A stretch of 64,000 nt of DNA. Source: Aminobacter anthyllidis (GTDB taxonomy: Bacteria; Pseudomonadota; Alphaproteobacteria; Rhizobiales; Rhizobiaceae). This document shows positions 40,679 to 59,692 of this stretch, in pieces (position 1 is the stretch's first letter; each line of letters starts with the position of its first letter). The stretch is from positions 496,001-560,000 of the forward strand of contig NZ_JAFLWW010000004.1 in assembly GCF_018555685.1 (NCBI RefSeq), written 5' to 3'. The position numbers and the translations under genes were made by a program. The notes below the pieces were generated by a model, which was not told the origin of the DNA, did no database searches, and worked only from the letters and a program-made list of their open reading frames with translations.

Positions 40679-41581
40679 ATGCGGATTTCACCAGGAGACA
40701 TCAGGGCGCTGACCGTGTTTCGCGCGCTTGTCGATCATGCCGGTTTCATGGGCGCGCAACTCGCGTTGGGCATGAGCCAGTCCACAGTCAGCTTCCATCT
40801 GAAGTCGCTCGAGGAGCGGCTTGGCTTTGAACTTTGCCGGCGTGGACGCCGTGGCTTCGAACTGACCGAACGAGGGCGCGCAGTCTACGATGCGTCGAAA
40901 CCGCTTGCCGCGTCGCTGTCGAGCTTCGAGGGCGCGCTTGGCGCGCTCCGCCATCAGTTGGTTGGAACGCTGCGGGTAGGGGTGGTCGACAATACGATCA
41001 CGGACGAAAACCTTTCACTGTCTGTGGTCATTGGCAACTGCATGCGCCGCTCGCCCGAGGTCGAAATCCTGCTGACGGTCGCCGCTCCGGAAACGCTGTT
41101 CGTCGAGCTCGCCAATGGTGGCGTCGATATCGTGGTCGCACCCCAGGTCGACGCGGTCGCGGGATTCGAGCAGGTCGTTTTCCATGAAGAGCTGCACTCG
41201 CTCTATTGCGGCCGCAGCCATGGGCTTTTTGGCACGAAGCCATCAATCGCCGAGGCCGAGGCATCGAACTTCGTAGTCCGGCCTTATGCGCGCAGCCGCG
41301 AGCTGGTGCATTTTCCCAATGCGAGGATCAGGGCACTGGCGTCGAACATGGAGGCACAGGCCGCCTTCATACTGAGCGGCGAGCTGATCGGATACCTACC
41401 CGAGCACTTTGCGCGCCACTGGGTGGAACGCGACCTGATGCGGCCGATCCTTTCGCCCGATACACGCATTGCCTCGCTGTTCGTGGTCGCGACGAATGGG
41501 AGTGCTGACCAATCGCCGCTGCAGCGGCTGTTCCAGCGCGAGCTACTCCAGCAAGGGTCGATGCGCGGCGAAGCCAACTAG
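40679..41581 (+). CDS. LysR-family regulator (ureohydrolase module, copy 1)
   Basis: A 300-residue regulator. ALTVFRALVDHAGFMGAQLALGMSQSTVSFHLKSLEERLGFELC is the helix-turn-helix (residues about 9-52), followed by RGRRGFELTERG. The effector domain starts at GTLRVGVVDNTITDENLSLS. It closely resembles the regulator at 57698-58630 (shared S-F/T-x-x-L-E-E-R-L-G and C-x-R-G-R-x-G-F-x-L-T), and both stand next to a paralogous ureohydrolase. Here it is upstream and co-directional, 102 bases away. GGGAAGG supports the ATG. Confidence 0.93.
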   Translation: MRISPGDIRALTVFRALVDHAGFMGAQLALGMSQSTVSFHLKSLEERLGFELCRRGRRGFELTERGRAVYDASKPLAASLSSFEGALGALRHQLVGTLRVGVVDNTITDENLSLSVVIGNCMRRSPEVEILLTVAAPETLFVELANGGVDIVVAPQVDAVAGFEQVVFHEELHSLYCGRSHGLFGTKPSIAEAEASNFVVRPYARSRELVHFPNARIRALASNMEAQAAFILSGELIGYLPEHFARHWVERDLMRPILSPDTRIASLFVVATNGSADQSPLQRLFQRELLQQGSMRGEAN

Positions 41582-41683
41582 TTGCTTCATATCGAATCCG
41601 TCGATGTGAAGGCCACTGAATTCAGCTTTTCAACATGACGTTGGCATGGCTTGCTCTTTCCAGACACTGGCAAGGAGCGTCCA

Positions 41684-42661
41684 ATGGCACATGGATATGA
41701 AAGCGGTAGGCTCGACCTGCCATTCGTCGGCATCGCGACTTTCGGCAAGCGCCCATACATTCAGAATTGGGACGCCATCAATGCCGATGTCGCGGTGCTT
41801 GGCGCGCCGTTCGATTTTGGAACACAATGGCGTTCCGGCGCGCGTTTCGGCCCGCGTTCGATACGTGAAGCCTCGACCCTGTTTTCGTTCGGCCATGCCG
41901 GAGCATACGATCATGAGGACGACGCCACCTATCTCGGCGGCGATGTTCGCATCGTCGACATTGGCGACGCCGACATCATCCACACCGATACGGTCAAGAG
42001 CCACGCCAACATCAAGCATGGCGTGCAGAAAATCCTGGCTGCCGGCGCACTTCCCGTCGTCCTCGGCGGAGACCATTCGATCAATATCCCATGCATCGAT
42101 GCCTTCGAAGGACGCGGTCCGATCCACGTGCTGCAGATCGATGCCCATCTCGACTTTGTCGACGAGCGGCATGGTGTTCGCTTCGGTCATGGCAGCCCGA
42201 TGCGTCGCGCCGCCGAAAAGGACTACGTGACCGGCTTGACGCAGGTAGGCATCCGCAATGTCTCGTCAACCGCCAAGGAAGGCTATGATGCGGCCCGCGA
42301 AATGGGATCGGACATCCTGTCGGTTCGCCAGGCGCGCGCGCTCGGCCCCAAGGGAGTCGCCGAGCGTATCCCGGGCGGCGCGCGTGTCTACGTGACGATC
42401 GACATCGACGCCTTTTGCCCTTCGATCGCGCCCGGCACGGGCACACCGAGCCATGGCGGATTTCAGTATTACGATGTGCTGGAACTACTTCAGGCAGTGG
42501 CGCGGGAACACGACATCGTCGGCATCGACCTGGTCGAGGTCGCGCCCGACTACGACCAGTCCGGATCGACACAGATCCTGGCCGCGCAGGTGCTGTTGAA
42601 CCTGCTTGGCTTCATCTTCGCGGCGCGTGCTGCCAATCCCGCGCTTCGTCCCGGCGGCTGA
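41684..42661 (+). CDS. Agmatinase-family ureohydrolase, copy 1
   Basis: A 325-residue binuclear-metal hydrolase that cleaves a guanidino group to urea plus an amine. Metal ligands are seen in GGDHS (His131), DAHLD (Asp153, His155, Asp157) and DID (Asp240, Asp242). The next conserved residue, Asp in the usual [12 protein letters not shown] block, is Cys245 here. [15 protein letters not shown] and the [11 protein letters not shown] insert define the subgroup. AAGGAG precedes the ATG. The gene leads straight into lipA-gcvTHP, so a substrate giving glycine, such as guanidinoacetate, is a reasonable guess; agmatine or guanidinobutyrate remain possible. Confidence 0.9.
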
Positions 42662-42696
42662 GGTTGCTCGACGTCCAACGAAACAGGATCGCAAAG

Positions 42697-43716
42697 ATGT
42701 CTGGAACGTCGCCTGGAAAGGTCGATCCTTTCGTTGAGGCATCCGGTTCCACTGGGACCGCGCAGAAGCGAGTTCGCCATCCCGAAAAGGCACTGCGCGA
42801 ACCGAGCAGGGTTCCACGCAAGCCGAACTGGATCCGCAGGGCGGCGGTCACGTCGCCGGTGTATTTCGAGACCCGGCGCATCATGCGGGAAGCGGCGGTG
42901 TCCACCGTCTGCGAAGAGGCCGCATGTCCGAATATCGGAGAGTGCTGGTCGAAAAAGCACGCGACCATGATGATCATGGGCGAGATCTGCACGCGTGGCT
43001 GCGCCTTCTGCAATGTCGCTACCGGCAGGCCGAACGCACTCGACCCCGGTGAGCCGATGCGTGTGGCGGCTGCGGTTGCAAGGCTTGGCTTGCGTCACGT
43101 CGTGATCACCTCCGTCGACCGCGACGACTTGATCGACGGAGGTGCTGGACACATCGCAGCCACCATCCGGGCTGTCAGAGGGTTGTGCCCCGAAACCACG
43201 ATTGAAGTGCTGACGCCGGACTTTCTGCGCAAGGGCGATGCCTGGCAGGAGGTCGCGGCCGCGAAGCCAGATGTGTTCAATCACAATCTCGAGACGGTGC
43301 CGCGGCTCTACCAGACGGTTCGCCCTGGCGCGCGCTATTATCAGAGCCTCAGGCTGCTCGATGACGTGAAAAGAGCCGGTCCGTCCATTTTCACCAAGTC
43401 GGGGCTGATGGTCGGCCTTGGCGAGAGCATCGCGGAAGTGGCGCAGGTCATGGACGATTTGAGAACCGCCGGAACCGACTTCCTCACGGTGGGCCAGTAT
43501 TTGCAGCCGACGCCGCGGCATCATCCGATCGACCGGTTTGTCACACCTGACGAGTTCCGCAGCATCGAGACCGTCGCCAAGGCCAAGGGGTTCCTGACCG
43601 TCGCGGCCACGCCGATGACGCGCTCGTCCTACCACGCCGACGAAGGCTTCGCCGCATTGCGTGCCGCGCGACTGGCTCAGCTCGGCAACGCCAACACAAA
43701 GGGAGCATGGCGATGA
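42697..43716 (+). CDS. lipA: Lipoyl synthase
   Basis: A 339-residue radical-SAM enzyme that inserts two sulfurs into octanoyl groups on lipoyl domains. The auxiliary cluster cysteines are C72-x4-C77-x5-C83 ([12 protein letters not shown]) and the SAM cluster is C98-x3-C102-x2-C105 (CTRGCAFC). The C-terminal RSSYHAD serine motif is intact. AGGATC precedes the ATG, so the long open frame upstream is not coding. Its TGA overlaps the gcvT start (ATGA). Housekeeping lipA usually sits near pyruvate dehydrogenase, so this is probably an additional copy serving GcvH. Confidence 0.93.
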
Positions 43717-44810
43717 CGGGACAGCCGAAACGAACACCGCTCCACGACCTGCATGTCGAGCTCGGCGGCAAGATCGTCGACTTCGCCGGCTGGGCGATGC
43801 CGGTCCAATATCCAGCTGGCATTATCGCCGAACACAATGCGTGCCGCACCAAAGCCGCGCTGTTTGACGTCTCGCATATGGGGCAGGTCGAACTGCACGG
43901 GGAGTTAGCGGCAGCCGAGTTGGAGCGGCTGGTGCCGAGCGCCATGGTTGGGCTTGCGCCAGGAAAGGCGCGCTACACCATGTTCACCAATCAGAATGGC
44001 AGCATTCTCGACGACCTGATCGTCTCCAATGCCGGCGACCACCTGTTTGTGGTGGTCAACGCAGCGATGCGCGATCAGGATATCGCCCATATGCGCGACA
44101 ACCTCGCCGGGATCAGGGTTGTCGAGCGCTCCGATCTGGCGCTGGTGGCGGTCCAGGGACCGAAGGCTGAGGCGGTGGTCGCGTCACTGGCGCCGGCTGC
44201 GGCACACCTGCGCTTCATGGAGACGGCCAAGGCCGACCTGGCAGGCATTCCCTGCCGCATCTCGCGCCTGGGCTATACCGGCGAGGACGGCTACGAGATC
44301 TCGATGCCGGCCAGCGAGGCGGAGAAAGTGGCCCGCGCGCTACTCGCCCACGAGGACTGCGAGCCTGCCGGCCTGGGCGCCCGCGACAGCCTTCGCCTGG
44401 AAGCCGGGCTTTGCCTTTACGGCAACGATATCGACACGCGGACATCGCCGATCGAGGCTCAGCTCAATTGGGCGATCCAGAAACGACGGCGCGAGGAGGG
44501 CGGGTTTCCCGGAGAGGAACGTATCCTGCGCGAACTGGCGTCGGGCCCGGCACGAAAGCTGGTCGGTCTGTTGCCGGAAGGGCGCGCACCGGCCCGCCAG
44601 TCCACGCAGATCGTCGATGCTGTTGGAGCGGTCATCGGTGAGGTGACATCGGGAGGTTTTGGGCCGACGGTGGGTGGGCCAGTGTCGCTCGGATACGTGC
44701 TGGCGTCGCATGCCGCCCCGGACACGCCAGTCAGCCTTGTCATTCGCGGCAACCCCGTTCCGGCCAGGGTCGTGTCGCTGCCGTTCGTTCCGCACAACTA
44801 CAAGCGCTAG
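43713..44810 (+). CDS. gcvT: Glycine cleavage system T protein (aminomethyltransferase)
   Basis: A 365-residue folate enzyme that releases ammonia and transfers the methylene carbon from lipoylated GcvH to tetrahydrofolate. Seen are [26 protein letters not shown] (split), the folate-binding VSHMGQVEL, the [16 protein letters not shown] block and [21 protein letters not shown]. The C-terminal [22 protein letters not shown] is also conserved. The ATG overlapping the lipA stop has GGGAG eight bases upstream and is preferred to the ATG six bases earlier. It forms an operon with lipA, gcvH and gcvP. Confidence 0.95.
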
Positions 44811-44821
44811 GGAGAGCCATG

Positions 44822-45187
44822 ATGAGCACCTTTTACACCGACGACCACGAATGGGTTCGAGTCACCGGCGATCACGCGGTGGTGGGCATCACCAGACACG
44901 CCGCCGACCAGCTTGGCGACGTCGTCTTCGTCGAGTTGAGGGCGGCAGGCGAGCGTTTCGCCAAATCGGACGAGATCGGAGTGATCGAGAGCGTCAAGGC
45001 CGCGAGCCCGATCTACGCGCCGGTGGCGGGTGAGGTCATCCAGACCAACCAGGCAGTGGTCGATGTGACTTCGATCCTCAATGACGATCCGGAGGCAACC
45101 GGCTGGCTCTACAAGATCAAGCTTGCCGACGTCGCCGAACTCGATGGCCTGATGGATGCAGATGCCTATGCCGCGCTGATCGCGTGA
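44822..45187 (+). CDS. gcvH: Glycine cleavage system H protein
   Basis: A 121-residue lipoyl carrier that shuttles the aminomethyl group between GcvP, GcvT and the L protein. TDDHEWVRV opens the domain; the lipoylated lysine is Lys59 in [24 protein letters not shown], then the [10 protein letters not shown] strand, complete the fold. GGAGA six bases upstream favours the second of two adjacent ATGs. It lies 11 bases behind gcvT and 10 before gcvP. Confidence 0.96.
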
Positions 45188-45197
45188 GGAGGGTCCC

Positions 45198-48050
45198 ATG
45201 TCGCTCAAACTGACACAGTACGAACCCTATGATTTTGCCAACCGACGCCATATCGGGCCGTCGCCTTCCGAAATGGCGGCAATGCTTGAAACGCTCGGCC
45301 TGCCGAGCGTCGACGCACTGATCGAAGAGACCATTCCCTCGGCGATCCGGCGCAGCAAGCCGCTGGCCTTTGGCCCGGCACTTTCCGAGCGGGACGCACT
45401 GCATCACATGCGCCAGGTGGCGGGCAAGAACCACGTGCTGACCTCGCTGATCGGGCAGGGCTACTACGGCACGACCACGCCGCCTGTGATCTTGCGCAAC
45501 ATTCTGGAGAACCCGGCCTGGTACACGGCCTACACACCTTACCAGCCCGAGATTTCACAAGGTCGGCTCGAGGCGTTGTTGAACTTCCAGACGATGATCT
45601 CCGACTTGACCGGCCTCGATATCGCCAATGCGTCTTTGCTGGACGAGGCAACTGCCGCGGCCGAGGCGATGACCATGGCAAAACGAGGCGCGAAATCGAA
45701 AGCCACGGCGTTTTTCGTCGACGAGAATTGTCATCCCCAGACCATCGCGGTGATCCAGACGCGCGCTCAGCCGCTCGATATCAAGGTCATCGTGGGCGAC
45801 CCCGATGACATGGTTTCGGAAAACGTCTTCGGAGCGATCTTCCAGTATCCGGGCACGTACGGCCATGTGCGCGATCTGACCGGGGTCATCCAAGAACTGC
45901 ACAAGGCGAGCGCAATCGCCGTCGTGGCTGCCGATCCGCTGGCCCTGACGCTGCTGAAGGCCCCGGGCGAAATGGGCGCCGACATCGCGGTCGGTTCGAC
46001 CCAGCGCTTCGGCGTGCCGATCGGCTACGGCGGCCCCCACGCCGCATACATGGCCTGCCGCCAGGAGTTCGTGCGGGCCATGCCCGGCCGCATCATCGGC
46101 GTGTCGATCGACGCGCGTGGAAACCGCGCCTACCGGCTGACATTGCAGACGCGCGAGCAGCATATTCGCCGCGAGAAGGCCAATTCGAATGTCTGCACCG
46201 CGCAAGCGTTGCTGGCGGTCATGGCGGCGATGTACGCTATTTTCCACGGCCCGGAGGGCTTGCAGGCGATCGCCCAAAGCATCCATCGCAAAACGGTTCG
46301 GCTCGCCAAGGGGCTGGAGGAACTGGGCTTCAAGGTTTCGCCGGAGGCCTTCTTCGACACGATCACGGTCGAAGTCGGTGCCATGCAGGGCGTCATTCTC
46401 AATGCGGCCGTCGCCAACAACGTCAACCTTCGCAAAATCTCGACCGACCGCGTCGGCATCAGTCTCGACGAACTGACCCGGCCTGAGACCATCGAGGCGG
46501 TATGGCGGGCCTTCGGCGGCAACATGAAGGACGACAGCACCAAGATCCGCGAATACCGGCTGCCCGAAGCACTGATGCGCGAGAGCAACTATCTCATGCA
46601 TCCGATCTTCCACATGAACCGGGCCGAAGCCGAAATGACCCGCTACATGCGGCGTCTTGCGGATCGCGATCTGGCGCTCGACCGGGCGATGATCCCGCTT
46701 GGCTCGTGCACGATGAAGCTCAACGCGACGGTGGAAATGATCCCGGTCACCTGGCCGGAATTCGCCAACCTGCATCCGTTCGCTCCGCTCGACCAAGCGC
46801 AAGGTTATGCCGAGATGATCGCCGATCTCTCGAACATGCTGTGCGATGTCACCGGCTATGATGCCGTTTCGATGCAGCCCAACTCCGGCGCACAAGGCGA
46901 ATATGCCGGGCTGCTGGCGATCCGTGGATATCACCTTGCGCGTGGCCAGGGACACCGGGATGTCTGCTTGATCCCGACGTCGGCCCACGGCACCAATCCA
47001 GCCTCCGCCCAGATGGTGGGTTGGCGCGTCGTGCCGGTCAGGTCGGCGGAAAACGGCGACATCGACATCGAGGACTTCAGGGCCAAGGCGCGCGAGCATA
47101 GCGCAAACCTTGCCGCCTGCATGATCACGTATCCTTCGACGCACGGCGTCTTTGAAGAATCCGTGCGCGAGGTGTGCGACATCACCCACGAGCATGGGGG
47201 CCAGGTCTACATCGACGGCGCCAACATGAACGCCATGGTCGGGCTGGTGGCCCCAGGCGAGATCGGTGGCGACGTCTCGCATCTCAACCTGCACAAGACC
47301 TTCTGCATTCCTCATGGCGGCGGCGGGCCCGGTATGGGTCCGATCGGCGTCAAGCACCACCTGATCCCACACCTGCCGGGGCATCCCGAGACAGGTGGGC
47401 ACGCGGGCCCCGTTTCGGCAGCGCCCTATGGCTCGCCCTCGATCCTGACCATTTCCTGGGCCTACTGCCTACTGATGGGTGGTGCCGGGCTGACGCAGGC
47501 GAGCAAGATAGCGATCCTGAACGCCAACTACATCGCCAAGCGATTGGAGGGGGCCTATCCGATTCTCTACACCGCGCCGACCGGACGGGTGGCTCATGAG
47601 TGCATCATCGACACCCGCGCGCTCAAGGAAACCTCGGGCGTCAGTGTAGAGGATGTCGCCAAGCGGCTGATGGATTGCGGTTTTCACGCACCGACGATGA
47701 GCTGGCCGGTTCCCGGCACGCTGATGATCGAACCGACCGAGTCCGAGCCGAAGGCCGAGCTCGACCGCTTCATCACCGCGATGCTTGCGATCCGTGCCGA
47801 AGCGCAAGCCATCGAAGATGGTGCGATTGACCGCGACAACAACCCGCTGAAGAACGCGCCGCACACGGTCGAGGATCTGGTTGGCGAATGGGAACGGCCA
47901 TATTCCCGCGAGCAGGGCTGCTTCCCGCCCGGGGCGTTCCGCGTCGACAAGTACTGGCCGCCCGTCAATCGCGTCGACAATGCGTTCGGCGACCGAAACC
48001 TGGTCTGCACCTGTCCGCCGATGGAAGACTACGCGGAGGCCGCCGAGTAG
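45198..48050 (+). CDS. gcvP: Glycine dehydrogenase (decarboxylating), P protein
   Basis: A 950-residue single-chain PLP enzyme that decarboxylates glycine. The N-terminal (non-catalytic) half opens with [10 protein letters not shown] and contains [21 protein letters not shown]. The catalytic half has the PLP lysine Lys700 in [30 protein letters not shown] and the C-terminal [22 protein letters not shown] (split) are conserved. The length is normal. No L protein (lpd) gene lies in the window, so one from an alpha-keto acid dehydrogenase must serve. It ends the lipA-gcvTHP operon. Confidence 0.97.
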
Positions 48051-49745: not shown

Positions 49746-49813
49746 CTCTTTCCACCAGCGTGCAGGGCGCAATCGCGCCCGGCGCGCCCCCTGCGATTCC
49801 CATGAGGCCGCGC

Positions 49814-51199
<1,386 letters not shown>

Positions 51200-51838: not shown

Positions 51839-51903
51839 CTCTTCTTAGCTTTCCATTTCTTGGCCACTTTGGCGTTTTGAGGGAAAAAGGGCAAGGAATT
51901 TTA

Positions 51904-51931
51904 TTGACAATAATTTTTTATAGCCTAAAAG
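51904..51931 (+). promoter_or_regulatory. Possible promoter of the BMP importer
   Basis: A TTGACA at 51904-51909 in an unusually AT-rich stretch is followed after about 16 bases by TAAAAG, 35 bases before the binding-protein start. The -35 is perfect, the -10 weak. Confidence 0.35.
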
Positions 51932-51965
51932 TTTTGTCGGAATAAATCATCAGGGAGGATGAATT

Positions 51966-52943
51966 ATGCTGAGGACAATTCTCAAGGGTCTGGGTCTCAA
52001 GAGCACGACGCTGGCCATGGCCGCGTTGGCGGTTACGCTGCCACAAGCACCGGTGCATGCCGACGATTTCAAAGTCGCGATCGTCCTGCCGGGTGTCATC
52101 ACCGACAACTCCTTTAATCAGGCTGGATATGAGGGCGTCGAGCGTGCGGCGCGCGAGCTCGGGATCGAGTTTGCCTATAGCGAAAAGACCGCACAGCCCG
52201 ATCAGCCCGAGGCGTTGGCTGATTACGCTCGCCGCGGCTACAATCTTGTCATCGGCCACGGCGGCGAGTTTCAGGATGCCGTGGATCGCATAGCGGGGCG
52301 GTTCCCCGATACCCAGTTTCTGGCAGTCAACGGAACCAAGGCGGGTGGCAACATCGCCATCATGAGCTTCGACTTCCCGGCACTCGGCTATGTGATGGGC
52401 TATGTTTCCGGCAAGGTATCGGAAACCGGGAAGGCCGGTTATGTCGGGGCCCAAAAGCTGAAGTTCTATGTCGAACTGGGCGAGGGGTTTGCCAAGGGCT
52501 TCACCGATGCGCGCCCCGATGGCGCCGTCTTTACCGCCTGGACGAATGATTGGGACGACGTAGCCAAGGGCAAGGAAGCCGCCTTGAACCTGATCGGTCA
52601 GGGCGCCGACGTGATCTTCGCGTCCATGGACAACGCCGTGGTCGGCAGCCTTCAGGGTGTCAAGGAAAAGGGCAAGATGGCGATCGGCATCTACTACGAT
52701 GCGATTGCCGATTGGCCCGACACCGTGATCCAGTCTGCAGTCTTTGACATGCGCAGCGCCATGGCGGACATCATCACCACCGCCAAGAACGGCAAGCTCG
52801 AGGGCAAGGCCTACATCTACGGACTGGACTCGTCCAAAGCCACGCGTATCGGCACATATGGTCCTGCCGTGCCTCAGGAGGTACAGCAAGAGGTCGACGA
52901 AGTGATCAAGAAGATCATTGCCGGTCAACTCACCACGCACTGA
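51966..52943 (+). CDS. BMP-family periplasmic binding protein of an ABC importer
   Basis: A 325-residue secreted binding protein of the basic-membrane-protein (PnrA/Med) class, which bind nucleosides and related purines. The signal region ends at APVHADD. FKVAIVLPGVITDNSFNQAGYEGVERAA is the class opening, GHGGEFQDAVDRIAGRFPDTQFLAVNGT (split) and SFDFPALGYVMGYVSG follow. It precedes an ATPase and two permeases of the matching type. AGGGAGGATGAATT precedes the ATG. The ligand could be a purine, pyrimidine, ureide or other small nitrogen compound. Confidence 0.93.
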   Translation: MLRTILKGLGLKSTTLAMAALAVTLPQAPVHADDFKVAIVLPGVITDNSFNQAGYEGVERAARELGIEFAYSEKTAQPDQPEALADYARRGYNLVIGHGGEFQDAVDRIAGRFPDTQFLAVNGTKAGGNIAIMSFDFPALGYVMGYVSGKVSETGKAGYVGAQKLKFYVELGEGFAKGFTDARPDGAVFTAWTNDWDDVAKGKEAALNLIGQGADVIFASMDNAVVGSLQGVKEKGKMAIGIYYDAIADWPDTVIQSAVFDMRSAMADIITTAKNGKLEGKAYIYGLDSSKATRIGTYGPAVPQEVQQEVDEVIKKIIAGQLTTH

Positions 52944-52962
52944 CCAAATCAGCCATTTGGCA

Positions 52963-52989
52963 GAAGAGGCAGCTCTTCACTGCCTCTTC
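52963..52989 (+). terminator. Hairpin between binding-protein and ATPase genes
   Basis: GAAGAGGCAG and CTGCCTCTTC form a perfect 10-bp stem with a 7-nt loop, 20 bases after the binding-protein stop. No U-tract follows. Such intercistronic stems commonly keep binding-protein mRNA in excess of the ATPase/permease mRNA. Confidence 0.55.
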
Positions 52990-53059
52990 GTCCCCTTCCG
53001 TCAGTACGTGACACCAGAACACTGGGTGATCTGTCGTGCGCACCAAGCAGGAACAGGCG

Positions 53060-54586
53060 ATGAAGACGTTTGCGCTTCAACTTGACCGTGTCAGCAAAGT
53101 CTTTGGTGACTTCCGTGCCCTGAACAACATCGACTTGCGTGTCGTTGCGGGCTCAATCCATGCAATTCTTGGAGAAAACGGCGCGGGCAAGACCACGCTG
53201 ATGAACATTCTCTATGGGCTTTACCAGCCAGATGGCGGCTCCATCACGTTGAATGGCCAGCCCGCCGTCATTCCTTCGCCCAGTGCGGCGATGGAGATGG
53301 GGATCGGCATGATCCATCAGCATTTCATGCTGGTAGACACGCTGACAGTCGTCGAAAATGTCGTCTTGGGCCTGCCGGGTCAGGGACTGCAGCTCTCGCT
53401 TGCCGAGCATGCTGCCCGGCTGACCGAGCTGAGCCAGACGTACGGGTTCGACATTGATCCGCATGTCGAGATCTGGAAGCTGCCGATTGGCATGCGCCAA
53501 CGCGTCGAAATCCTCAAGGTGCTGTATCGCCAGGCGAACATCATCATCCTCGACGAACCCACCAGCGTGCTTGCCCCCAACGAGGTGGCCAGTTTCCTGG
53601 AGGGACTGAAACGACTGCGCGATGCCGGCAAGACGGTGATCTTCATCACCCACAAGCTCGATGAGGTGGCCGAAGTAGCCGACCGCATCACCGTCATGCG
53701 GCTTGGCCAGGTCACGGCCGAAACCGAGGTGGCAAGCATCACCACCCGCGACATGGCGCGGATGATGGTCGGACGCGACGTCGTACTGACGGCGTTCGAA
53801 AAACCGGACACCCCGCCGGGACCGCTCAGAGTCGTCGCTCGCAATCTTAGCGCCATCGACAACAGGGGCATCCAGGCGCTCAAGGATGTGTCGTTTGAGA
53901 TCCGCTCTGGCGAGATTCTTGGCGTGGCCGGGGTTGATGGCAACGGGCAGGCCGAACTTGCCGAGGTGCTGACCGGCATGCGTGCGCCAAGCGCAGGCAG
54001 CCTGGCTGTGGATGGCGAGGACATAACCGCGCTGTCGGTATACGACCGCCGGCATCGGATCGGACTGTCTTATGTTCCCGAGGATCGGCACCACACTGGT
54101 CTGGTGCTTGATTTTTCGGTGATGAAAAACGCGATGCTGCGTGATTTCCGCGTCGCGCCCTTCTCGAAAAACGGCGTGCTGGACATGCGCCGCGCAAGAG
54201 AAGTCACCGATGCCTGGGTGAAGCAGTTTGACGTGCGTCTGCGCTCCGTCGATCAGGCGGTGCGGTTCCTTTCGGGTGGCAACCAGCAAAAGCTGATCTT
54301 TGCGCGCGAAGTCGAATGCCGCCCGCGTGTCATGGTGGTCATGCAGCCCTGCAAGGGGCTGGATGTCGGAGCCATCGAGGTACTGCAACGCGCCATCCTG
54401 AGCGAACGTCAACGCGGCACGGCAATCCTCTACATCTCGACCGAACTCGAGCACATCCTCAATGTCTGCGACCGCGTGGCGGTCATGTGCGCAGGTCGGA
54501 TCACCGGAATTCTGCGCCCGCAAGACGCTACCGACGCTCGCGTCGGTGCCTTGATGGGTGGCATCAGCGAAGCGGAGAGTGCCTGA
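53060..54586 (+). CDS. BMP-type ABC importer ATPase (two tandem nucleotide-binding domains)
   Basis: A 508-residue subunit with two ATPase modules. Module 1: Walker A GENGAGKT (38-45), a degenerate signature LPIGMRQRVEI and Walker B IIILDEPTSVLAP. Module 2: a degenerate Walker A (GVDGNGQAEL, no Lys), intact signature LSGGNQQKL and an altered Walker B (VMQPCKGLDVG). One catalytic and one degenerate site is normal for the nucleoside-type (YufO/RbsA-like) subunits. The ATG with AGGAACAGG upstream is preferred to a GTG 24 bases earlier. The stop overlaps the first permease by one base. Confidence 0.93.
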   Translation: MKTFALQLDRVSKVFGDFRALNNIDLRVVAGSIHAILGENGAGKTTLMNILYGLYQPDGGSITLNGQPAVIPSPSAAMEMGIGMIHQHFMLVDTLTVVENVVLGLPGQGLQLSLAEHAARLTELSQTYGFDIDPHVEIWKLPIGMRQRVEILKVLYRQANIIILDEPTSVLAPNEVASFLEGLKRLRDAGKTVIFITHKLDEVAEVADRITVMRLGQVTAETEVASITTRDMARMMVGRDVVLTAFEKPDTPPGPLRVVARNLSAIDNRGIQALKDVSFEIRSGEILGVAGVDGNGQAELAEVLTGMRAPSAGSLAVDGEDITALSVYDRRHRIGLSYVPEDRHHTGLVLDFSVMKNAMLRDFRVAPFSKNGVLDMRRAREVTDAWVKQFDVRLRSVDQAVRFLSGGNQQKLIFAREVECRPRVMVVMQPCKGLDVGAIEVLQRAILSERQRGTAILYISTELEHILNVCDRVAVMCAGRITGILRPQDATDARVGALMGGISEAESA

Positions 54587-55677
54587 TGCTCGACATCATA
54601 CGCTACGTCTACATGCTGCGTCCGGTCTGGGCCGTGCTTGCCGCACTGTTTGTCGGTGCAGGCTTGATTGCGGTGTCCGGCGTAAACCCGCTCACCGCCT
54701 ATTCCGAACTCTTTTCGGGCGCCTTCCTGGACTACTACGGCCTTGCCGGAACGCTGGTGAAGACCTCGCCCATCCTGCTGGCCGGCCTTGCCGTGATCCT
54801 GCCTTTGCGCGCCGGATTGCTGAACATCGGCGTCGAAGGCCAGATCTACATGGGCGGCCTGTTTTCGACCTTCGCAGCCCTGCTGCTTCCTCCCATGCCA
54901 GCAATGATCCACTTGCCGATCTGCATCCTTTTTGGGGCACTCGGAGGCGGGTTATGGGGGCTGATCCCCGGCTATCTCAAGGCGTTGCATGGTTTGAACG
55001 AGGTCATCGTCACCATCTTGCTGAACTTCATCGCGATCAACATCGTCAGCTTCGTGGTGGGTGGGCCGATGATGCAGGAAGGCGCCCCCTATCCCTATTC
55101 CGATGAAATCGGTGAACAGCTGTTCTTGCCGATCGTCCTGCCTGGCACCGACGCACATATCGGCTTTCTTGTCGGGCTGGTGCTGGCGGTCGCGATGTAT
55201 TTCTTGCTGCGCTTCACCACGACCGGCTTCGCCCTGGACACGATCGGAAGCAACCCCCAGGCCGCTCGTTATGCAGGCATTCCGGTGCGCCGCTATGTCA
55301 TGCTGAGCATGTTCGCTGCCGGCGCCATTGGCGGCCTGGCTGGGGCGCTGGAAATTCTCGGGTTGAAGCACCGGCTGTATCATCTGTTTTCGCCGGGTTA
55401 CGGGTTCGATGGCATCGTCGTGGCCTTCATGGCCCAGCTCAACCCGTTGTTTGCTCCGGTCGCGGCATTTTTCCTCAGCGGCCTCAAGGCAGGAGCCCTG
55501 GTGATGCAGCGGGCCGTCGGGCTCGAAAGCACCGTGATCGAGGCGATTCTCGGCCTGGTCATCATCTTCGTCGCCGCCAGCCTTGCCTTCACCTACAACC
55601 GTACGTTCTGGAAGCTGCTTCTCGAACGCCGGCGTCAGGTCGAGGCCGACCTTGGCGCAAGCATGGGAGAGAAATAG
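54586..55677 (+). CDS. BMP-type ABC importer permease 1
   Basis: A 363-residue inner-membrane permease of the BPD_transp_2 class with about nine or ten helices. RAGLLNIGVEGQIYMGGLFSTFAAL is the diagnostic block, GLNEVIVTILLNFIAINIVSF and RYAGIPVRRYVMLSMFAAGAIGGLAGALE follow. The TGATG overlap with the ATPase gene and the one-base overlap with the next permease show tight coupling. Confidence 0.93.
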   Translation: MLDIIRYVYMLRPVWAVLAALFVGAGLIAVSGVNPLTAYSELFSGAFLDYYGLAGTLVKTSPILLAGLAVILPLRAGLLNIGVEGQIYMGGLFSTFAALLLPPMPAMIHLPICILFGALGGGLWGLIPGYLKALHGLNEVIVTILLNFIAINIVSFVVGGPMMQEGAPYPYSDEIGEQLFLPIVLPGTDAHIGFLVGLVLAVAMYFLLRFTTTGFALDTIGSNPQAARYAGIPVRRYVMLSMFAAGAIGGLAGALEILGLKHRLYHLFSPGYGFDGIVVAFMAQLNPLFAPVAAFFLSGLKAGALVMQRAVGLESTVIEAILGLVIIFVAASLAFTYNRTFWKLLLERRRQVEADLGASMGEK

Positions 55678-56615
55678 TGGAGCAGCTCTTCGACGCGCAG
55701 TTCATGGCTGATTTCCTTGGCTCCAGCCTGCGCCTTTCAGTGCCGATCATCTTTGCCGCTATTGGTGGCGTTCTGGCCGAGCGATCGGGCGTGTTCAACA
55801 TATCGCTGGAGGGCTGCATCTTGGGCGGCGCCTTTGGTGCCGCGGTAGGCACCTACCTGACGGGCTCGCCCTTTTGCGGGCTGATGCTTGGCATCACTGT
55901 TGCGGGATCGGTGGGTATCATGCTGGCGATGCTGGCGGTGGGGCTGGGCATCAACCAGCTCGTGGCGGGCATTGCGATCAACCTGCTGATGGTCGGGCTG
56001 ACATCGTATCTTGCGCGCCTGATCCTGGGTGGCGATGCGACGTCGACCCTGCCAGGCTTTCACCCCATAGCGCTGCCTGGACTAGCCTCGATCCCAATCA
56101 TTGGCCCCGTCCTGTTCCAGCAAGATATCCTGACCTACCTGATGTATCTGGTCGTGCCGGCATCCTGGTGGTTTTTGTACCGGACGCCTTGGGGGCTGAA
56201 CGTGCGTGCGATCGGCGACTATCCCGTCGCTGCCGACAGTGCCGGCATCAGCGTTCCCTTCGTACGAACGGTCTGCGTCATCGTCAGCTGCATGCTGGCG
56301 GGGGTTGGGGGCGCCTATCTGGTGCTCAGCCAGGTGTTCGTGTTCACCGAGCATATGAGTGCCGGCAAGGGCTTCATCGCCTTGGCCGCGCTGATCCTCG
56401 GGCGCTGGAACCCGGTGGGGGCGTTCTTGGCCTGCATCTTCTTTGGCATGTCCGACGCGCTGCAGCTGCGCCTGCAGTTCACAAGCCCCGACGTGCCCTA
56501 CCAGTTGTTTTCGATGGTGCCGTTCCTCGCCTCGTTGCTGGCGTTGGTGCTGCTGAGCGGAAAGGTCCGTCCACCTGCCGCCATCGGCAAGAAATACGTC
56601 AGGGGAGGAAAATAA
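55677..56615 (+). CDS. BMP-type ABC importer permease 2
   Basis: A 312-residue permease with about eight to nine helices. ERSGVFNISLEGCILGGAFGAAVG, GLGINQLVAGIAINLLMVGLTSYLA and AADSAGISVPFVRTVCVIVSCMLAG are the class blocks. The GTG start overlaps the TAG of the first permease. It completes a four-gene importer and is followed two bases later by the deacetylase-like gene. Confidence 0.93.
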   Translation: MEQLFDAQFMADFLGSSLRLSVPIIFAAIGGVLAERSGVFNISLEGCILGGAFGAAVGTYLTGSPFCGLMLGITVAGSVGIMLAMLAVGLGINQLVAGIAINLLMVGLTSYLARLILGGDATSTLPGFHPIALPGLASIPIIGPVLFQQDILTYLMYLVVPASWWFLYRTPWGLNVRAIGDYPVAADSAGISVPFVRTVCVIVSCMLAGVGGAYLVLSQVFVFTEHMSAGKGFIALAALILGRWNPVGAFLACIFFGMSDALQLRLQFTSPDVPYQLFSMVPFLASLLALVLLSGKVRPPAAIGKKYVRGGK

Positions 56616-56616
56616 G

Positions 56617-57540
56617 ATGACACCGACGACCCAAGCCATGATTGCAAACCCGGTTCCCTGGCCGAATGGCGCACGCTGCGCCTGCTCGATCTCTTTCGAC
56701 ATGGATGCCGACAGCCTGATCCACATCGAACACCCCGAGGATGGGCACACCCGAGTCTCGGGGATCTCGATGCTGCAATACGGGCCTGAGATCGCCGTGC
56801 CCCGGATTGTCGAGACCTACCGCCGCCTGGGCCTGCGCCAGACGTTTTTCATTCCCGCCTGGTGCATGGAACGCTACCCGGCGGCGGTCGACACGATCCT
56901 CGCGGGCGGACACGAGATTGGCCAGCATGGCTACCTTCACGAAAACCCGTTGAAGCAAAGCCGTGAAGAACAGGCCTATTGGCTGGATCGCTCGATGGAG
57001 GTTATTCGCCGCATGACCGGGGCCGCCCCTCGAGGATGGCGCGCGCCGCTCTACAATTTCTCAAACCATTCGGCGGATCTGCTGGTGGAGCGCGGCTTTC
57101 TCTATGACGCGTCGCTGATGGGCGATGACGTGCCTTATGTTTTGACCACACCCAAGGGCGAACTCGTAGAACTGCCTTCTCATTGGGGACTCGATGACTG
57201 GCCACAGTTCGTGCAGTCCTTCGACCTGGACTACATGATGCCGGTCCGTGCCCCGCGCGCCGGGTTCGAGATTTTCCGCCAGGAGTTCGAGGCGGCCTAT
57301 CTCTATGGCGGGCTTTGGGTACCGGTGGTGCATCCGTTCGCCACTGGCAGATTGGCAAGATGGCATGTGGTGGCCGAGTTCCTGGAAGAGGTATTGGCCC
57401 GCGGAAACGTCTGGTTCGCCCCCATGGAAGAGATAGCGGCGCACGTAGCCAAGGTGACGCGGGAGGGAAGCTTCAGTCCGCGTCGCGTCGCCGTGCCTCA
57501 ATATGACGGACCGGTCAAACCGGTATCGAAGTTTGGCTGA
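56617..57540 (+). CDS. Polysaccharide-deacetylase-fold hydrolase (PuuE-like)
   Basis: A 307-residue NodB-fold metal hydrolase. SISFDMDADSL supplies the Asp pair, GQHGYLHENP the H-x-x-x-H/P zinc motif and RGWRAPLYNFS the substrate loop. WVPVVHPFATGRLARW supplies the catalytic His. Members include polysaccharide deacetylases and PuuE-type allantoinase/peptidase-like enzymes acting on amide bonds of nitrogen heterocycles. GGGGAGGAAAATAAG precedes the ATG, directly behind the permease. Co-transcription with a BMP-type importer favours a small imported amide or ureide substrate over a cell-wall role. Confidence 0.85.
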   Translation: MTPTTQAMIANPVPWPNGARCACSISFDMDADSLIHIEHPEDGHTRVSGISMLQYGPEIAVPRIVETYRRLGLRQTFFIPAWCMERYPAAVDTILAGGHEIGQHGYLHENPLKQSREEQAYWLDRSMEVIRRMTGAAPRGWRAPLYNFSNHSADLLVERGFLYDASLMGDDVPYVLTTPKGELVELPSHWGLDDWPQFVQSFDLDYMMPVRAPRAGFEIFRQEFEAAYLYGGLWVPVVHPFATGRLARWHVVAEFLEEVLARGNVWFAPMEEIAAHVAKVTREGSFSPRRVAVPQYDGPVKPVSKFG

Positions 57541-57697
57541 CCCCGCTTGGTCGACGGATCGTGCCTTGAATCTCGAACGCCTAACCGGGGAGGATGAGGG
57601 TGATCTCACGCGGCATCGGCTACGTGGTTGCGCAGCGGGATTGTGACAGCGGTGATGAAAAGTCGGACCCACAGCCGTGGCCGAGGCCGGCAGAACC

Positions 57698-58630
57698 TCA
57701 AAGCGGCCTGCGCACGCTTTTGGTAATGGCCTTTGCTAGGGTTTCGGCCGCGCGGGATGGTTTGTTGCGCGGGTAGGCGATGTGGAACATGTCCTCGAAA
57801 GTCATGCGCTCGGGGGCGAGCAGCCGCAGTCGGCCATTGCGCACCCATTCGTCGGCATAGTGATCAGGCAGAAAGCCGATATAGGCGCCTGAGAGGAGAA
57901 GCAGCAGCGTTCCCTCCATATGTGGTGTCGCGGCCGCCCAGGTAAAGTTCGCGCCGCAGATCGTCTCGTTCAGCATATAGGTGCGTCCGGCGAAGGATTG
58001 CGCCTCCAGAAGCTCGTCGCTGAGGTCGGCGTCGGGTGTCGCAAAGAGCGGATGTTCCTTGGCGCAATAGAGCTTCTGCATCTCGGAAAACACCGGCTGG
58101 CTGCGGAAATGCGGCGTGACGCTGCCGACCGAGGGCATGAGCACGATCTGGTAGGTGCCATTCAGCAGGCCCTGGTGCAGGACCTGCGGTGCGGCGACGT
58201 CGATCTCGAGATGCACGCGTGGGGCCTGGCCGTGGAAGGCGGCGAGGGCGCCCTGCAAGTCGAGATCGCGGTTGGTGATCATGGCGTCAACGGTGCCGAA
58301 GCTGAGATTCCCGGTCAGTTCGCCTTGCGCCTCGCCGATGCGGCTTTGGAACTTTTCCAGCGAACCGAAGAGTTCCAGCGCCGACTCGTAGACGAGCCGT
58401 CCCTCGTCGGTGAGCAGGAACCCGCTGCGGCCACGGCTGCAGAGGCGCAGGCCGAGACGCTCTTCCAGATGGCGCATATGGGTGGAGATCGTCGCCTGGG
58501 TCATTCCAAGCGCAGATTGCGCGGCGGAGAAGCCGCCATGCTGCACCACCGAGGCGAACACCCGCAGGAGCCTGAGCTCCGCGTCTCCTAGCGACAGATT
58601 GAGGACACGGTGGCGAACCTTGTTGATCAT
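57698..58630 (-). CDS. LysR-family regulator (ureohydrolase module, copy 2)
   Basis: A 310-residue regulator. LRLLRVFASVVQHGGFSAAQSALGMTQATISTHMRHLEERLGLRLC is the helix-turn-helix (residues about 18-63), followed by RGRSGFLLTDEG. The effector domain begins near GNLSFGTVDAMITNRDLDL. It resembles the regulator at 40679-41581 in both domains. It is transcribed divergently from ureohydrolase copy 2, so it is the likely regulator. The ATG is used; a TTG ten codons upstream is possible and neither has a clear ribosome site. Confidence 0.92.
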   Translation of the reverse strand: MINKVRHRVLNLSLGDAELRLLRVFASVVQHGGFSAAQSALGMTQATISTHMRHLEERLGLRLCSRGRSGFLLTDEGRLVYESALELFGSLEKFQSRIGEAQGELTGNLSFGTVDAMITNRDLDLQGALAAFHGQAPRVHLEIDVAAPQVLHQGLLNGTYQIVLMPSVGSVTPHFRSQPVFSEMQKLYCAKEHPLFATPDADLSDELLEAQSFAGRTYMLNETICGANFTWAAATPHMEGTLLLLLSGAYIGFLPDHYADEWVRNGRLRLLAPERMTFEDMFHIAYPRNKPSRAAETLAKAITKSVRRPL

Positions 58631-58665
58631 ACATTGATTAATGCACAAGTGAACATGCAATCATA

Positions 58666-58683
58666 GATACTTTTAAACGTATC
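58666..58683. promoter_or_regulatory. Inverted repeat in the LysR/ureohydrolase intergenic region
   Basis: GATAC-N8-GTATC, in an AT-rich window 38 bases before the ureohydrolase start and 36 from the LysR start. It is a candidate LysR-binding half-site pair or the promoter core. Confidence 0.45.
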
Positions 58684-58720
58684 AGCCTTTGGCACACTCC
58701 TTCCACCGTGGAGGAGAAAC

Positions 58721-59692
58721 ATGGCCAGCAATTCTTATGAGACCGGACGGCTTAACCTGCCGTTCGTCGGCATCTGCACCTTCGGCAAATATCCCTACCA
58801 GCCGGATTGGGATGCCATCGACGCCGATGTGGCGATCCTCGGCGCGCCCTTCGACTGCGGCACGCAATGGCGCGCCGGCACCCGCTTCGGGCCGCGGTCG
58901 ATCCGCGAGGCCTCGACCCTCTTTTCGTTCGGCCACGGCGGCGCCTACGACCACGAGGACGACGTCACCTACCTGCCGAGTGGTGCGGTCTCCATCGTCG
59001 ATATCGGTGATGCCGACATCGTGCACACCGACACGATGAAGAGCCATGCCAACATCGAATTCGGCGTTCGCAAGATCCTTGCCGCCGGCGCACTGCCTGT
59101 CGTGCTGGGTGGCGACCATTCCGTCAATATCCCCTGCATCAACGCTTTTGCCGAGGACTGCGCGAAGAATGGGCCGATCCACATCGTGCAGATCGACGCC
59201 CATCTCGATTTCGTCGACGAGCGCCACGGCGTACGCTACGGCCATGGCAATCCGATGCGACGGGCGGCGGAAAAGCCCTATGTCAGCGGCCTGTCGCAAC
59301 TTGGCATCCGCAACGTGTCGTCCACGGCGAAGGAAGGATACGAGGACGCCCGCAAGATGGGCTCCGACATCCTGTCGGTGCGCCAGATCCGGGCGCTCGG
59401 CACACAGACGGTAGCCGAGCGCGTGCCGGCCGGCGCACGCTACTACGTGACGATCGACATTGACGGTTTCGATCCGTCGATCGCGCCAGGCACGGGCACA
59501 CCGTCGCATGGTGGCTTCATCTATTACGAAGTGCTGGAAATCCTTAGCGCGCTCACCAAGCGCGGCACGGTCGTCGGTATCGATCTCGTCGAGGTCGCGC
59601 CTGACTACGACCATTCCGGCTCCACATCCATTCTGGCGGCGCAGGTGCTGATGAACCTGATCGGCCGCGTCATGCATGCAAAGGCAACGTGA
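58721..59692 (+). CDS. Agmatinase-family ureohydrolase, copy 2
   Basis: A 323-residue paralogue of the enzyme at 41684-42661. GGDHS (His133), DAHLD (Asp159, His161, Asp163) and the later D-I-D-G-F-D-P-S motif supply all expected metal ligands, including the Asp that is Cys in copy 1. [11 protein letters not shown] and [15 protein letters not shown] are shared. GGAGGAG precedes the ATG. It heads an operon with an aldehyde dehydrogenase, a small membrane protein, an NCS1 permease and a GMC enzyme, consistent with using a guanidino or related compound as nitrogen source. Confidence 0.92.
   Translation: MASNSYETGRLNLPFVGICTFGKYPYQPDWDAIDADVAILGAPFDCGTQWRAGTRFGPRSIREASTLFSFGHGGAYDHEDDVTYLPSGAVSIVDIGDADIVHTDTMKSHANIEFGVRKILAAGALPVVLGGDHSVNIPCINAFAEDCAKNGPIHIVQIDAHLDFVDERHGVRYGHGNPMRRAAEKPYVSGLSQLGIRNVSSTAKEGYEDARKMGSDILSVRQIRALGTQTVAERVPAGARYYVTIDIDGFDPSIAPGTGTPSHGGFIYYEVLEILSALTKRGTVVGIDLVEVAPDYDHSGSTSILAAQVLMNLIGRVMHAKAT

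What the first reader, a model, noticed from the sequence alone, without database searches (positions are those of the whole stretch)
40679..59692. Duplicated LysR-ureohydrolase module brackets a glycine-to-pyruvate cluster
Two similar LysR regulators each stand next to a paralogous agmatinase-family enzyme (41684-42661 and 58721-59692). The first leads into lipA-gcvTHP, glyA and sdaA, i.e. glycine decarboxylation, serine formation and serine deamination. A ureohydrolase that releases glycine would be a guanidinoacetate hydrolase, and the neighbours would then convert the product fully to pyruvate and C1 units. This is an inference from gene order.
Basis: inference. Interest (0 to 1): 0.85.

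Follow-up and report, generated by a model that had tools for sequence, protein, structure and literature searches.

The report
Urea-releasing enzyme leads glycine-breakdown operon
A soil-type bacterium places an uncharacterised urea-releasing enzyme at the head of a glycine-to-pyruvate gene set, which makes it a candidate, still untested, for an enzyme that cuts guanidinoacetate into glycine and urea.

Summary
LysR1 and ureohydrolase A (UreoA) run, 35 bp on, into lipA-gcvT-gcvH-gcvP, then glyA-sdaA. A second LysR and UreoB lie 16 kb on, with an aldehyde dehydrogenase, an NCS1 permease and a second choline-dehydrogenase-like gene. They are not a local duplication: UreoA and UreoB (77% identical) fall in different groups of the family (DIDxFCP versus DIDGFDP).

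The glycine inference gains local support. lipA and gcvP here are second copies. Some related plasmid glycine operons carry a sodium:alanine symporter where this one starts with UreoA. Kin genomes hold different glycine gene sets beside such ureohydrolases. Two arginine-decarboxylase models found no such gene. Arginine fills the chain-length position (Met161/Tyr157 of GbuA/GpuA) in 149 of 150 relatives.

Against it: glycine genes lie near only 2 of 147 family loci (3 with a truncated one). A matched test was not significant (3 of 60 versus 0 of 39, P=0.28). Transporters beside relatives are mixed. D. radiodurans agmatinase has the same arginine. The active-site loops model poorly.

Best reading: an uncharacterised ureohydrolase recruited to feed glycine breakdown, guanidinoacetate being the likeliest substrate. 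Guanidinoacetase (EC 3.5.3.2) was listed as an orphan in 2007. Biochemistry must decide.

The parts
40679..41581 (+). LysR-family regulator 1
   Evidence: Pfam HTH_1 and LysR_substrate; 49-51% identical to LysRs next to ureohydrolase + amino-acid ABC loci, 40% to LysR2
41684..42661 (+). UreoA, PF00491 ureohydrolase of the DIDxFCP group; first gene of the putative operon
   Evidence: Pfam 263.7 bits; metal ligands and catalytic residues intact; tree
42697..43716 (+). lipA, second lipoyl synthase copy
   Evidence: NCBIfam lipA over cut-off; other copy at C1:821742, 67% identical; starts 35 bp after UreoA
43707..44810 (+). gcvT
   Evidence: NF010093 517.5 bits, cut-off 459; overlaps lipA by 10 bp
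44819..45187 (+). gcvH
   Evidence: TIGR00527 over cut-off
45198..48050 (+). gcvP, second copy of the genome
   Evidence: TIGR00461 1419.5 bits; other copy C1:484177, 56% identical
48486..49745 (+). glyA
   Evidence: NF000586 over cut-off; 88.6% identical to the glyA of a sarcosine oxidase operon in Aminobacter sp. SR38
49802..51199 (+). sdaA, L-serine ammonia-lyase
   Evidence: TIGR00720 over cut-off
51212..51838 (-). TetR-family regulator
   Evidence: Pfam TetR_N
51966..56615 (+). BMP-type ABC importer: binding protein 51966-52943, ATPase 53060-54586, permeases 54586-55677 and 55677-56615
   Evidence: Pfam Bmp; NCBIfam B6-type ABC models, all below cut-off; starts
56617..57540 (+). PuuE-like polysaccharide-deacetylase-family hydrolase
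   Evidence: Pfam Polysacc_deac_1; PuuE allantoinase model 73.3 bits, cut-off 424.6; PDB relatives 3rxz, 3qbu, PuuE 3cl6
57698..58630 (-). LysR-family regulator 2, divergent from UreoB
   Evidence: Pfam; 88% identical to the LysR of the same module in Roseateles sp. XES5
58721..59692 (+). UreoB, PF00491 ureohydrolase of the DIDGFDP group
   Evidence: Pfam 272.4 bits; tree
59721..61229 (+). aldehyde dehydrogenase of unknown specificity
   Evidence: Pfam Aldedh; BADH model 510.3 bits, cut-off 668.6
61350..61517 (+). 55-aa ORF with a hydrophobic C-terminal half, before the permease
   Evidence: read; a small ORF at the same place in XES5, Ensifer canadensis and Gemmobacter
61519..62982 (+). NCS1 (cytosine/allantoin-type) permease
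   Evidence: Pfam Transp_cyt_pur
62999..64000 (+). betA-like GMC oxidoreductase, 5' part; continues beyond the window
   Evidence: G000:C25:559014-560591 scores 761.6 bits on TIGR01810 (cut-off 732.1); the other copy over cut-off is at C12:385947, next to a betB-like gene

Best explanation
UreoA is the entry enzyme of a dedicated glycine-catabolic operon. A guanidino compound is taken up and hydrolysed to urea plus glycine. GcvTHP (with its own LipA for lipoylation of GcvH) turns glycine into CO2, NH3 and methylene-THF. GlyA joins that C1 unit with a second glycine to serine, and SdaA makes pyruvate and NH3. The substrate that fits is guanidinoacetate. LysR1 probably senses the guanidino compound. 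UreoB is a related enzyme of a neighbouring module, in which the betA-like GMC oxidoreductase and the ALDH could make a short guanidino acid from its alcohol (for example guanidinoethanol to guanidinoacetate) before hydrolysis. Shown here: gene content, spacing, second-copy status of lipA and gcvP, intact active sites, place in the family. Inferred: one transcript, the substrate, the product glycine, the regulator's ligand, and the whole UreoB pathway.
For: (a) UreoA-lipA gap 35 bp, lipA/gcvT overlap 10 bp, gcvT-gcvH 8 bp, gcvH-gcvP 10 bp, one strand. (b) Second copies: gcvP 56% identical to the C1 copy, lipA 67%. (c) Comparable operons: of six plasmid gcv loci read lipA is in three (62, 63, 67) and a sodium:alanine symporter before gcvT in three (41, 62, 63); P. 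inhibens has lpd-lipA-symporter-gcvT-gcvH-gcvP. The window has no symporter there; UreoA stands at the head. (d) Three different glycine gene sets beside this family in related genomes: the window; glyA-lpd-gcvT-gcvH-gcvP-sdaA in XES5, the first four genes and the start of gcvP also in G002; glyA-folD-purU-D-serine ammonia-lyase in Shinella HZN7. GcvP of window and XES5 are 73% identical, GcvT 54%, GcvH 47%. (e) glyA-sdaA is 81.6% identical in DNA to the tail of a sarcosine oxidase operon. (f) Metal ligands H131, D153, H155, D157, D240, D242 and H169, E285 in 150 of 150 members; the position of GbuA Met161/GpuA Tyr157 is Arg in 149 and Lys in 1 (role of Met161/Tyr157 from a passage of PMC10833137). 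(g) Two arginine decarboxylase models: TIGR01273 three weak hits, best 47.9 bits against cut-off 624.1; PF01276 none. The pyruvoyl type was not searched. (h) A TRAP importer directly before the enzyme in 8 of 147 loci, all 8 in the UreoA group; that TRAP importers favour acids is recalled.
Against: Glycine genes are rare neighbours: 2 of 147 loci (45% identity threshold), with a truncated glyA at a contig edge as a third (L105); only 107 of the 147 have 8 kb on both sides. 3 of 60 order loci against 0 of 39 shifted control regions, Fisher P=0.28; 0 of the 80 loci, or 1 with L105. None of 20 gcv loci picked from the upper part of the list has the ureohydrolase. The UreoA-gcv operon was seen in this genome alone among the loci fetched. 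A polyamine-type ABC importer lies beside the enzyme in 14 of 147 loci, 8 of them in the UreoA group (one binding protein scanned). D. radiodurans agmatinase also has Arg at that position. The carboxylate-facing Arg72 of GbuA has no evident counterpart, and the family has instead an invariant acidic pair in a longer cap loop (D76, E78). Human AGMAT, also a guanidino-acid hydrolase, does not take guanidinoacetate (PMC9772407, passages).
Confidence: 0.4

Rival explanations
1. UreoA and UreoB are agmatinases of a catabolic type: imported agmatine is cut to putrescine and urea, and ALDH and later enzymes take putrescine to GABA. The gcv operon is an unrelated neighbour on a catabolic island.
For: TIGR01230 agmatinase cut-off passed (186.9 and 184.8 bits, cut-off 174.3). 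Nearest solved structure by sequence and fold is D. radiodurans agmatinase. Polyamine-type ABC importers beside the enzyme in 14 of 147 loci. An acidic cap loop could hold an amine (inference).
Against: The narrower PRK02190 agmatinase model is not reached (199.8 and 204.9, cut-off 302). Two arginine decarboxylase models found no gene; import is not excluded. Tight spacing with lipA-gcvTHP. The betA-like gene has no obvious role in agmatine use. No kinetics were reported for the D. radiodurans enzyme (PMC8125230, passages).
Confidence: 0.22
2. The enzymes hydrolyse another short guanidino compound (3-guanidinopropionate, taurocyamine, guanidinoethanol, or a product of the PuuE-like/SDR enzymes), UreoA and UreoB perhaps different ones; glycine is not, or not always, the product.
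For: Partner genes differ by group: SDR pair in 18, PuuE-like deacetylase in 15, second speB in 18 of 147 loci, all with D at position 245; TRAP only with C (8). That suggests more than one substrate.
Against: None of these products explains lipA-gcvTHP-glyA-sdaA behind UreoA. The genome already holds a protein 61% identical to P. aeruginosa guanidinopropionase over the stretch compared.
Confidence: 0.28
3. Chance assembly: a horizontally acquired catabolic island put a glycine operon next to ureohydrolase modules, with no shared pathway.
For: No significant family-wide enrichment of glycine genes. In sister genome G007 a 226-bp UreoA remnant (92%) is fused to a deacetylase remnant, the region between being absent there, while the UreoB module is kept. 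The pieces have different nearest relatives.
Against: 35-bp spacing to lipA; three different glycine gene sets near this family in related genomes.
Confidence: 0.1

Closest known systems
P. aeruginosa GbuA / GpuA (guanidinobutyrase, guanidinopropionase; 3nio, 3nip)
   Same: Metal ligands and His/Glu catalytic pair, fold; LysR regulators beside the genes there are recalled
   Different: 34-35% identity; Met161/Tyr157 replaced by Arg; Arg72 cap without counterpart; longer cap loop with acidic residues
Deinococcus radiodurans agmatinase (1wog)
   Same: Top hit among solved structures by sequence and fold (37% identity); Arg at the same specificity position
   Different: His169 is Asn there; cap loop differs; no kinetics reported (PMC8125230, passages)
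Ni-dependent guanidinase GdmH (9fek, 7esr)
   Same: Fold, 35-36% identity, metal ligands
   Different: The Trp named as important for guanidine (W313 in N. inopinata, PMC11410670, passages) is Thr in UreoA and UreoB
Heteromeric metformin/dimethylguanidine hydrolase
   Same: Superfamily; this genome has a divergent tandem pair of ureohydrolase genes at C25:162457-164326, not compared directly with those enzymes
   Different: 24-25% identity by fold search; UreoA/B are single genes with complete metal sites
Secondary glycine operons of Phaeobacter, Ruegeria and Paracoccus plasmids
   Same: lipA, gcvT, gcvH, gcvP (GcvP 76-78% identical in listed Phaeobacter and Ruegeria plasmids) as an accessory unit
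   Different: There lpd, and a sodium:alanine symporter in P. inhibens and Ruegeria THAF33; no ureohydrolase in the stretches read
Guanidinoacetase EC 3.5.3.2
   Same: Predicted reaction: guanidinoacetate + H2O to glycine + urea
   Different: No sequence to compare; listed as a validated orphan in 2007 (PMC1940265, passages). Whether it has since been assigned was checked only in the searches named in the report

Membership tests
Arginase/ureohydrolase superfamily (PF00491) | Profile match and six metal ligands | tested here: met
   263.7 and 272.4 bits; ligands in 150 of 150 members
Agmatinase (EC 3.5.3.11) | TIGR01230 equivalog score | tested here: met
   186.9 and 184.8 bits, cut-off 174.3. 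A UreoB-type protein of Shinella HZN7 (184.4) and a more distant ureohydrolase of Mesorhizobium (212.7) pass too, a third just misses (173.5), so the score discriminates little
Agmatinase (EC 3.5.3.11) | PRK02190 agmatinase subfamily score | tested here: not met
   199.8 and 204.9, cut-off 302
Agmatinase (EC 3.5.3.11) | Source of agmatine (arginine decarboxylase) in the genome | tested here: inconclusive
   TIGR01273 and PF01276 found none; pyruvoyl-type enzymes not searched, import not excluded
Guanidinobutyrase/guanidinopropionase | Met161 or Tyr157 equivalent | tested here: not met
   Arg in 149, Lys in 1 of 150
Guanidinase GdmH | Trp linked to guanidine specificity | tested here: not met
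   GTGW in 9fek, GTGT in UreoA/UreoB
Guanidinoacetase (EC 3.5.3.2) | Hydrolysis of guanidinoacetate to glycine and urea | not testable with these tools
   needs purified enzyme
Guanidinoacetase (EC 3.5.3.2) | Linkage to glycine catabolism kept across the family (expected, not defining in the strict sense) | tested here: not met
   2 of 147 loci, 3 with a truncated glyA; P=0.28
Accessory glycine-cleavage operon | gcvT, gcvH, gcvP complete, beside another copy elsewhere | tested here: met
   gcvTHP also at C1 (L203)
Local gene duplication | The two enzymes are each other's nearest kin | tested here: not met
   separate groups in the tree, C/D signature

The most novel reading that the evidence does not exclude
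This ureohydrolase clade, named agmatinase in many of the plasmid records that carry it, contains the missing gene for guanidinoacetase (EC 3.5.3.2). In this island it forms a full route from a choline-like guanidino alcohol (guanidinoethanol) through guanidinoacetate to glycine, C1 units and pyruvate, analogous to choline to betaine to glycine.
Probability: 0.25. Interest if true: 0.75.

Novelty: new variant of a known kind. Interest (0 to 1): 0.5.

Why it matters
Annotated ureohydrolases are often named agmatinase although their substrates differ. A clade with a distinct cap loop and an arginine at the chain-length position, placed in one genome at the head of a glycine operon, gives a directly testable candidate for an enzyme activity that was listed without a gene in 2007. 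[quoted passage not shown]

Tried and rejected
Local duplication: rejected by the tree and by the C/D signature at position 245. The tree is a quick one (SH-aLRT only) with long outgroup branches.

Family-wide conservation of the gcv link: tested and not found. The coverage filters dropped a truncated glyA at the edge of L105 (86 residues, 66%, about 1.2 kb before UreoA). Looser C1 genes (sarcosine oxidase, dimethylglycine dehydrogenase, MttB, 5-formyl-THF cyclo-ligase): 0 of 60 order loci, 1 of 39 controls, 8 of 80 loci (all SoxB-like), 2 of 9 plasmid loci; no sign of enrichment in the order set.

Glycine or guanidine riboswitch: an Rfam scan of the whole window at E up to 1 gave one hit, below its gathering score and of no relevance.

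AlphaFold model of UreoA (24 rows): pTM 0.82, mean pLDDT 73.4, but loops 44-54, 68-82 and 162-165 have pLDDT under 50, so it could not test the Arg162 idea. The fold search returned ureohydrolases of many known specificities.

Transporter type as a guide to the substrate: TRAP (8 loci), polyamine-type ABC (14), NMT1-type ABC (15), BMP (4), amino-acid ABC (5) of 147; too mixed to decide. The types rest on one scanned binding protein each and homology for the rest.

Paper searches (open-licence PMC texts only) showed no gene assigned to guanidinoacetase in their listings; one search was swamped by section numbers and by common words, so both say little.

Control weaknesses: the 39 control regions were taken from the same contigs at round-number places, and the 60 case loci include near relatives and two stretches of one genome. 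The 80 loci are the best of at least 554 and lean to Rhodobacterales. From not every matched place was fetched.


Full report
WHERE. The window is G000:C25:496001-560000 of a 6.7-Mb genome with ten PF00491 matches. DNA of the UreoB module is 85-88% identical to plasmids of Ensifer canadensis, Sinorhizobium fredii NGR234, Shinella zoogloeoides and 'Roseateles' sp. XES5 (flagged UNVERIFIED_ORG in its own record), so the host is probably a Shinella/Ensifer-like member of the Rhizobiaceae (inference).

OBSERVATION. Spacing: LysR1-UreoA 102 bp; UreoA-lipA 35 bp; lipA/gcvT overlap 10 bp; gcvT-gcvH 8 bp; gcvH-gcvP 10 bp; gcvP-glyA 435 bp; glyA-sdaA 56 bp with the start at 49802. UreoA to gcvP therefore looks like one operon; glyA-sdaA may have its own start. 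Then follow a TetR regulator, a BMP-type ABC importer and a PuuE-like deacetylase, then LysR2 (divergent), UreoB, ALDH, a 55-aa ORF, an NCS1 permease and a betA-like gene cut by the window end.

NOT A DUPLICATION. UreoA and UreoB are 77% identical. UreoA's best matches elsewhere are 83-84% identical, in Rhodobacteraceae and in G300, while UreoB is 94-100% identical to proteins of the same genus, XES5 and Ensifer canadensis. In a quick tree of 97 rows the C at position 245 needs one change; UreoA lies in the 26-row C group (SH-aLRT 93) and UreoB in its 52-row sister group (93), inside an eight-row set (100). Of 150 aligned members 87 have C and 63 D. By contrast the two copies in XES5, and the two in G002, pair within each genome in that tree. 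Sister genome G007 carries a 226-bp UreoA remnant, 92% identical, fused to the 3' part of the deacetylase gene, followed by the UreoB module at 94.5%. This suggests that UreoA stood upstream of this module in a common ancestor and argues against an assembly error; it does not show that the gcv genes were there.

THE GLYCINE OPERON. The genome has another gcvP (56% identical), with gcvT and gcvH beside it (L203), and another lipA (67%). The closest plasmid relatives of the window's GcvP (76-78%) are in accessory glycine loci. Six were read: P. inhibens DSM 17395 pPGA1_78 has lpd-lipA-sodium:alanine symporter-gcvT-gcvH-gcvP; Ruegeria THAF33 adds glyA and a universal stress gene; Paracoccus TOH has glyA-lpd-lipA-gcvT-gcvH-gcvP-sdaA; Aliiroseovarius has symporter-universal stress gene-gcvTHP without lipA; R. 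pomeroyi and Limimaricola have gcvTHP with neither. So lipA is in three of six and the symporter in three of six; none has a ureohydrolase in the stretch read. In the window there is no symporter, and UreoA stands immediately before lipA. The window's glyA-sdaA is 81.6% identical in DNA to the end of soxBDAG-glyA-sdaA in Aminobacter SR38. The cluster thus looks like a composite of parts that share one metabolite, glycine (inference).

OTHER GLYCINE SETS NEAR THE FAMILY. XES5 has sdaA-gcvP-gcvH-gcvT-lpd-glyA and a LysR, about 6 kb before a BMP importer and 11 kb before a ureohydrolase. G002, same genus as the window, shows glyA-lpd-gcvT-gcvH and the start of gcvP in the same place, where the fetched stretch ends. 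The XES5 Gcv proteins are 73% (P), 54% (T) and 47% (H) identical to the window's, in another gene order. Shinella HZN7 has glyA-folD-purU-D-serine ammonia-lyase beside LysR-amino-acid ABC-APC-ureohydrolase-SDR-SDR-deacetylase. So three different glycine sets occur in related genomes.

THE NEGATIVE RESULT. Across the family this does not hold. With a 45% identity threshold glycine genes are in 2 of 147 loci (L112 and L118; the window itself and L217 were not in that set). A check without the coverage filter adds a truncated glyA at the contig edge of L105, a Planktomarina record. Only 107 of the 147 loci have 8 kb on both sides, so the counts are lower bounds. A test on 60 loci of the order and family against 39 regions from the same contigs gave 3 (one with gcv/glyA, two with purU alone, from one genus) against 0, P=0.28; 0 of the 80 loci (1 with L105); 2 of 9 plasmid loci, which I had picked partly by eye. 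Looser C1 genes gave 0 of 60, 1 of 39, 8 of 80 and 2 of 9. None of 20 gcv loci picked from the upper part of the list has the ureohydrolase. Of six lipA relatives fetched from the class search, one (G759) is in a lipA-gcvTHP operon, on a contig of the same length as a Phaeobacter porticola plasmid, again without ureohydrolase.

THE ENZYME. All metal ligands and the catalytic His and Glu are present in 150 of 150 members. The residue at the position of GbuA Met161 / GpuA Tyr157, said to take part in substrate recognition (passage of PMC10833137), is Arg in 149 and Lys in 1. An arginine there could meet the carboxylate of an acid too short to reach further out; this is inference. Arg72 of GbuA, which caps the neighbouring active site and could interact with the carboxylate (passages of PMC9772407), has no evident counterpart; instead there is a longer loop with invariant F69, G70, D76 and E78. 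D. radiodurans agmatinase also has Arg, but Asn at His169; PMC8125230 (passages) says that it is the only structure among the putative agmatinases with reported agmatinase activity and that no kinetics were given. The Trp linked to guanidine specificity (PMC11410670, passages) is Thr here. The model has pLDDT under 50 in just these loops.

THE UREOB MODULE. LysR-UreoB-ALDH-small ORF-NCS1-betA is kept in XES5 and Ensifer canadensis, with a MocR-type regulator and an ABC importer after it; the same genes, without a look for the small ORF, show in G002, G006 and G007. In Gemmobacter the ALDH place is taken by SDR-SDR-deacetylase. The betA-like protein passes the choline dehydrogenase cut-off (761.6, cut-off 732.1), as does a second gene at C12 that has a betB-like neighbour, so this is an extra copy; its ALDH neighbour does not pass the betaine aldehyde dehydrogenase cut-off. 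A guanidino analogue of choline, guanidinoethanol, would give guanidinoacetate. This is a proposal from gene content alone.

AGMATINE. Two arginine decarboxylase models found no gene in this genome (TIGR01273 best 47.9 bits against 624.1; PF01276 none). Pyruvoyl-type enzymes were not searched, and agmatine could be imported.

LITERATURE. EC 3.5.3.2 appears in a 2007 survey as a validated orphan enzyme with 'good' salvageability (PMC1940265, two passages; that EC 3.5.3.2 is guanidinoacetase is recalled). Human AGMAT, a guanidino-acid hydrolase, does not act on guanidinoacetate (PMC9772407, passages). Searches of open-licence full texts listed no paper that assigns a gene; subscription papers are not covered, so an assignment could have been missed.

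VERDICT. Gene facts confirmed; duplication wrong; glycine-feeding role for UreoA plausible (0.4) and specific enough to test; UreoB's role open. The finding is a candidate for an orphan activity but not more than that without enzyme assays.

Noticed in passing
G000:C25:162457-164326: Tandem pair of divergent ureohydrolase genes (31% identical to each other) that recalls the two-subunit dimethylguanidine/metformin hydrolases; one copy has altered metal-ligand motifs in the alignment. Not compared directly with those enzymes.
   Followed up: partly
L119 (G007:C27:214029-214254): Sister genome carries a 226-bp remnant of UreoA fused to a truncated deacetylase gene, with the glycine and BMP transporter stretch absent at that place.
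   Followed up: yes
window 32806-37487: Another ABC importer (ATPase, two permeases) followed by a choline-dehydrogenase-like GMC oxidoreductase (473.7 bits on TIGR01810, below cut-off).
   Followed up: no
window 28896-30218 (-): A cytochrome P450 gene.
   Followed up: no
L120, L148, L157, L165, L170, L176 and others: Recurring set in loci with D at position 245: NMT1-type ABC importer, SDR pair, a second speB and often a PuuE-like deacetylase, with the ureohydrolase; SDR pair in 18, second speB in 18, deacetylase in 15 of 147 loci. Looks like an undescribed pathway for a guanidino compound.
   Followed up: partly
L105 1-258 and 1467 onwards: Planktomarina record with the 3' end of a glyA gene at the contig edge, about 1.2 kb before a UreoA-group ureohydrolase.
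   Followed up: partly
G000:C3:50264-51082: Ureohydrolase 61% identical to P. aeruginosa guanidinopropionase, with Tyr at the Tyr157 position.
   Followed up: no
L202 (G000:C25:557000-576900): Downstream of betA: MocR-type regulator, ABC importer, TIM-barrel protein, then a second set with BtpA/SgcQ-like, ureidoglycolate-lyase-like and kinase genes and another PuuE-like gene.
   Followed up: no
NZ_CP084754.1 (Roseateles sp. XES5): Record is filed under Betaproteobacteria and marked UNVERIFIED_ORG, but this plasmid region is 85% identical in DNA to the window's UreoB module, whose other near matches are Rhizobiaceae; the label may be wrong.
   Followed up: partly
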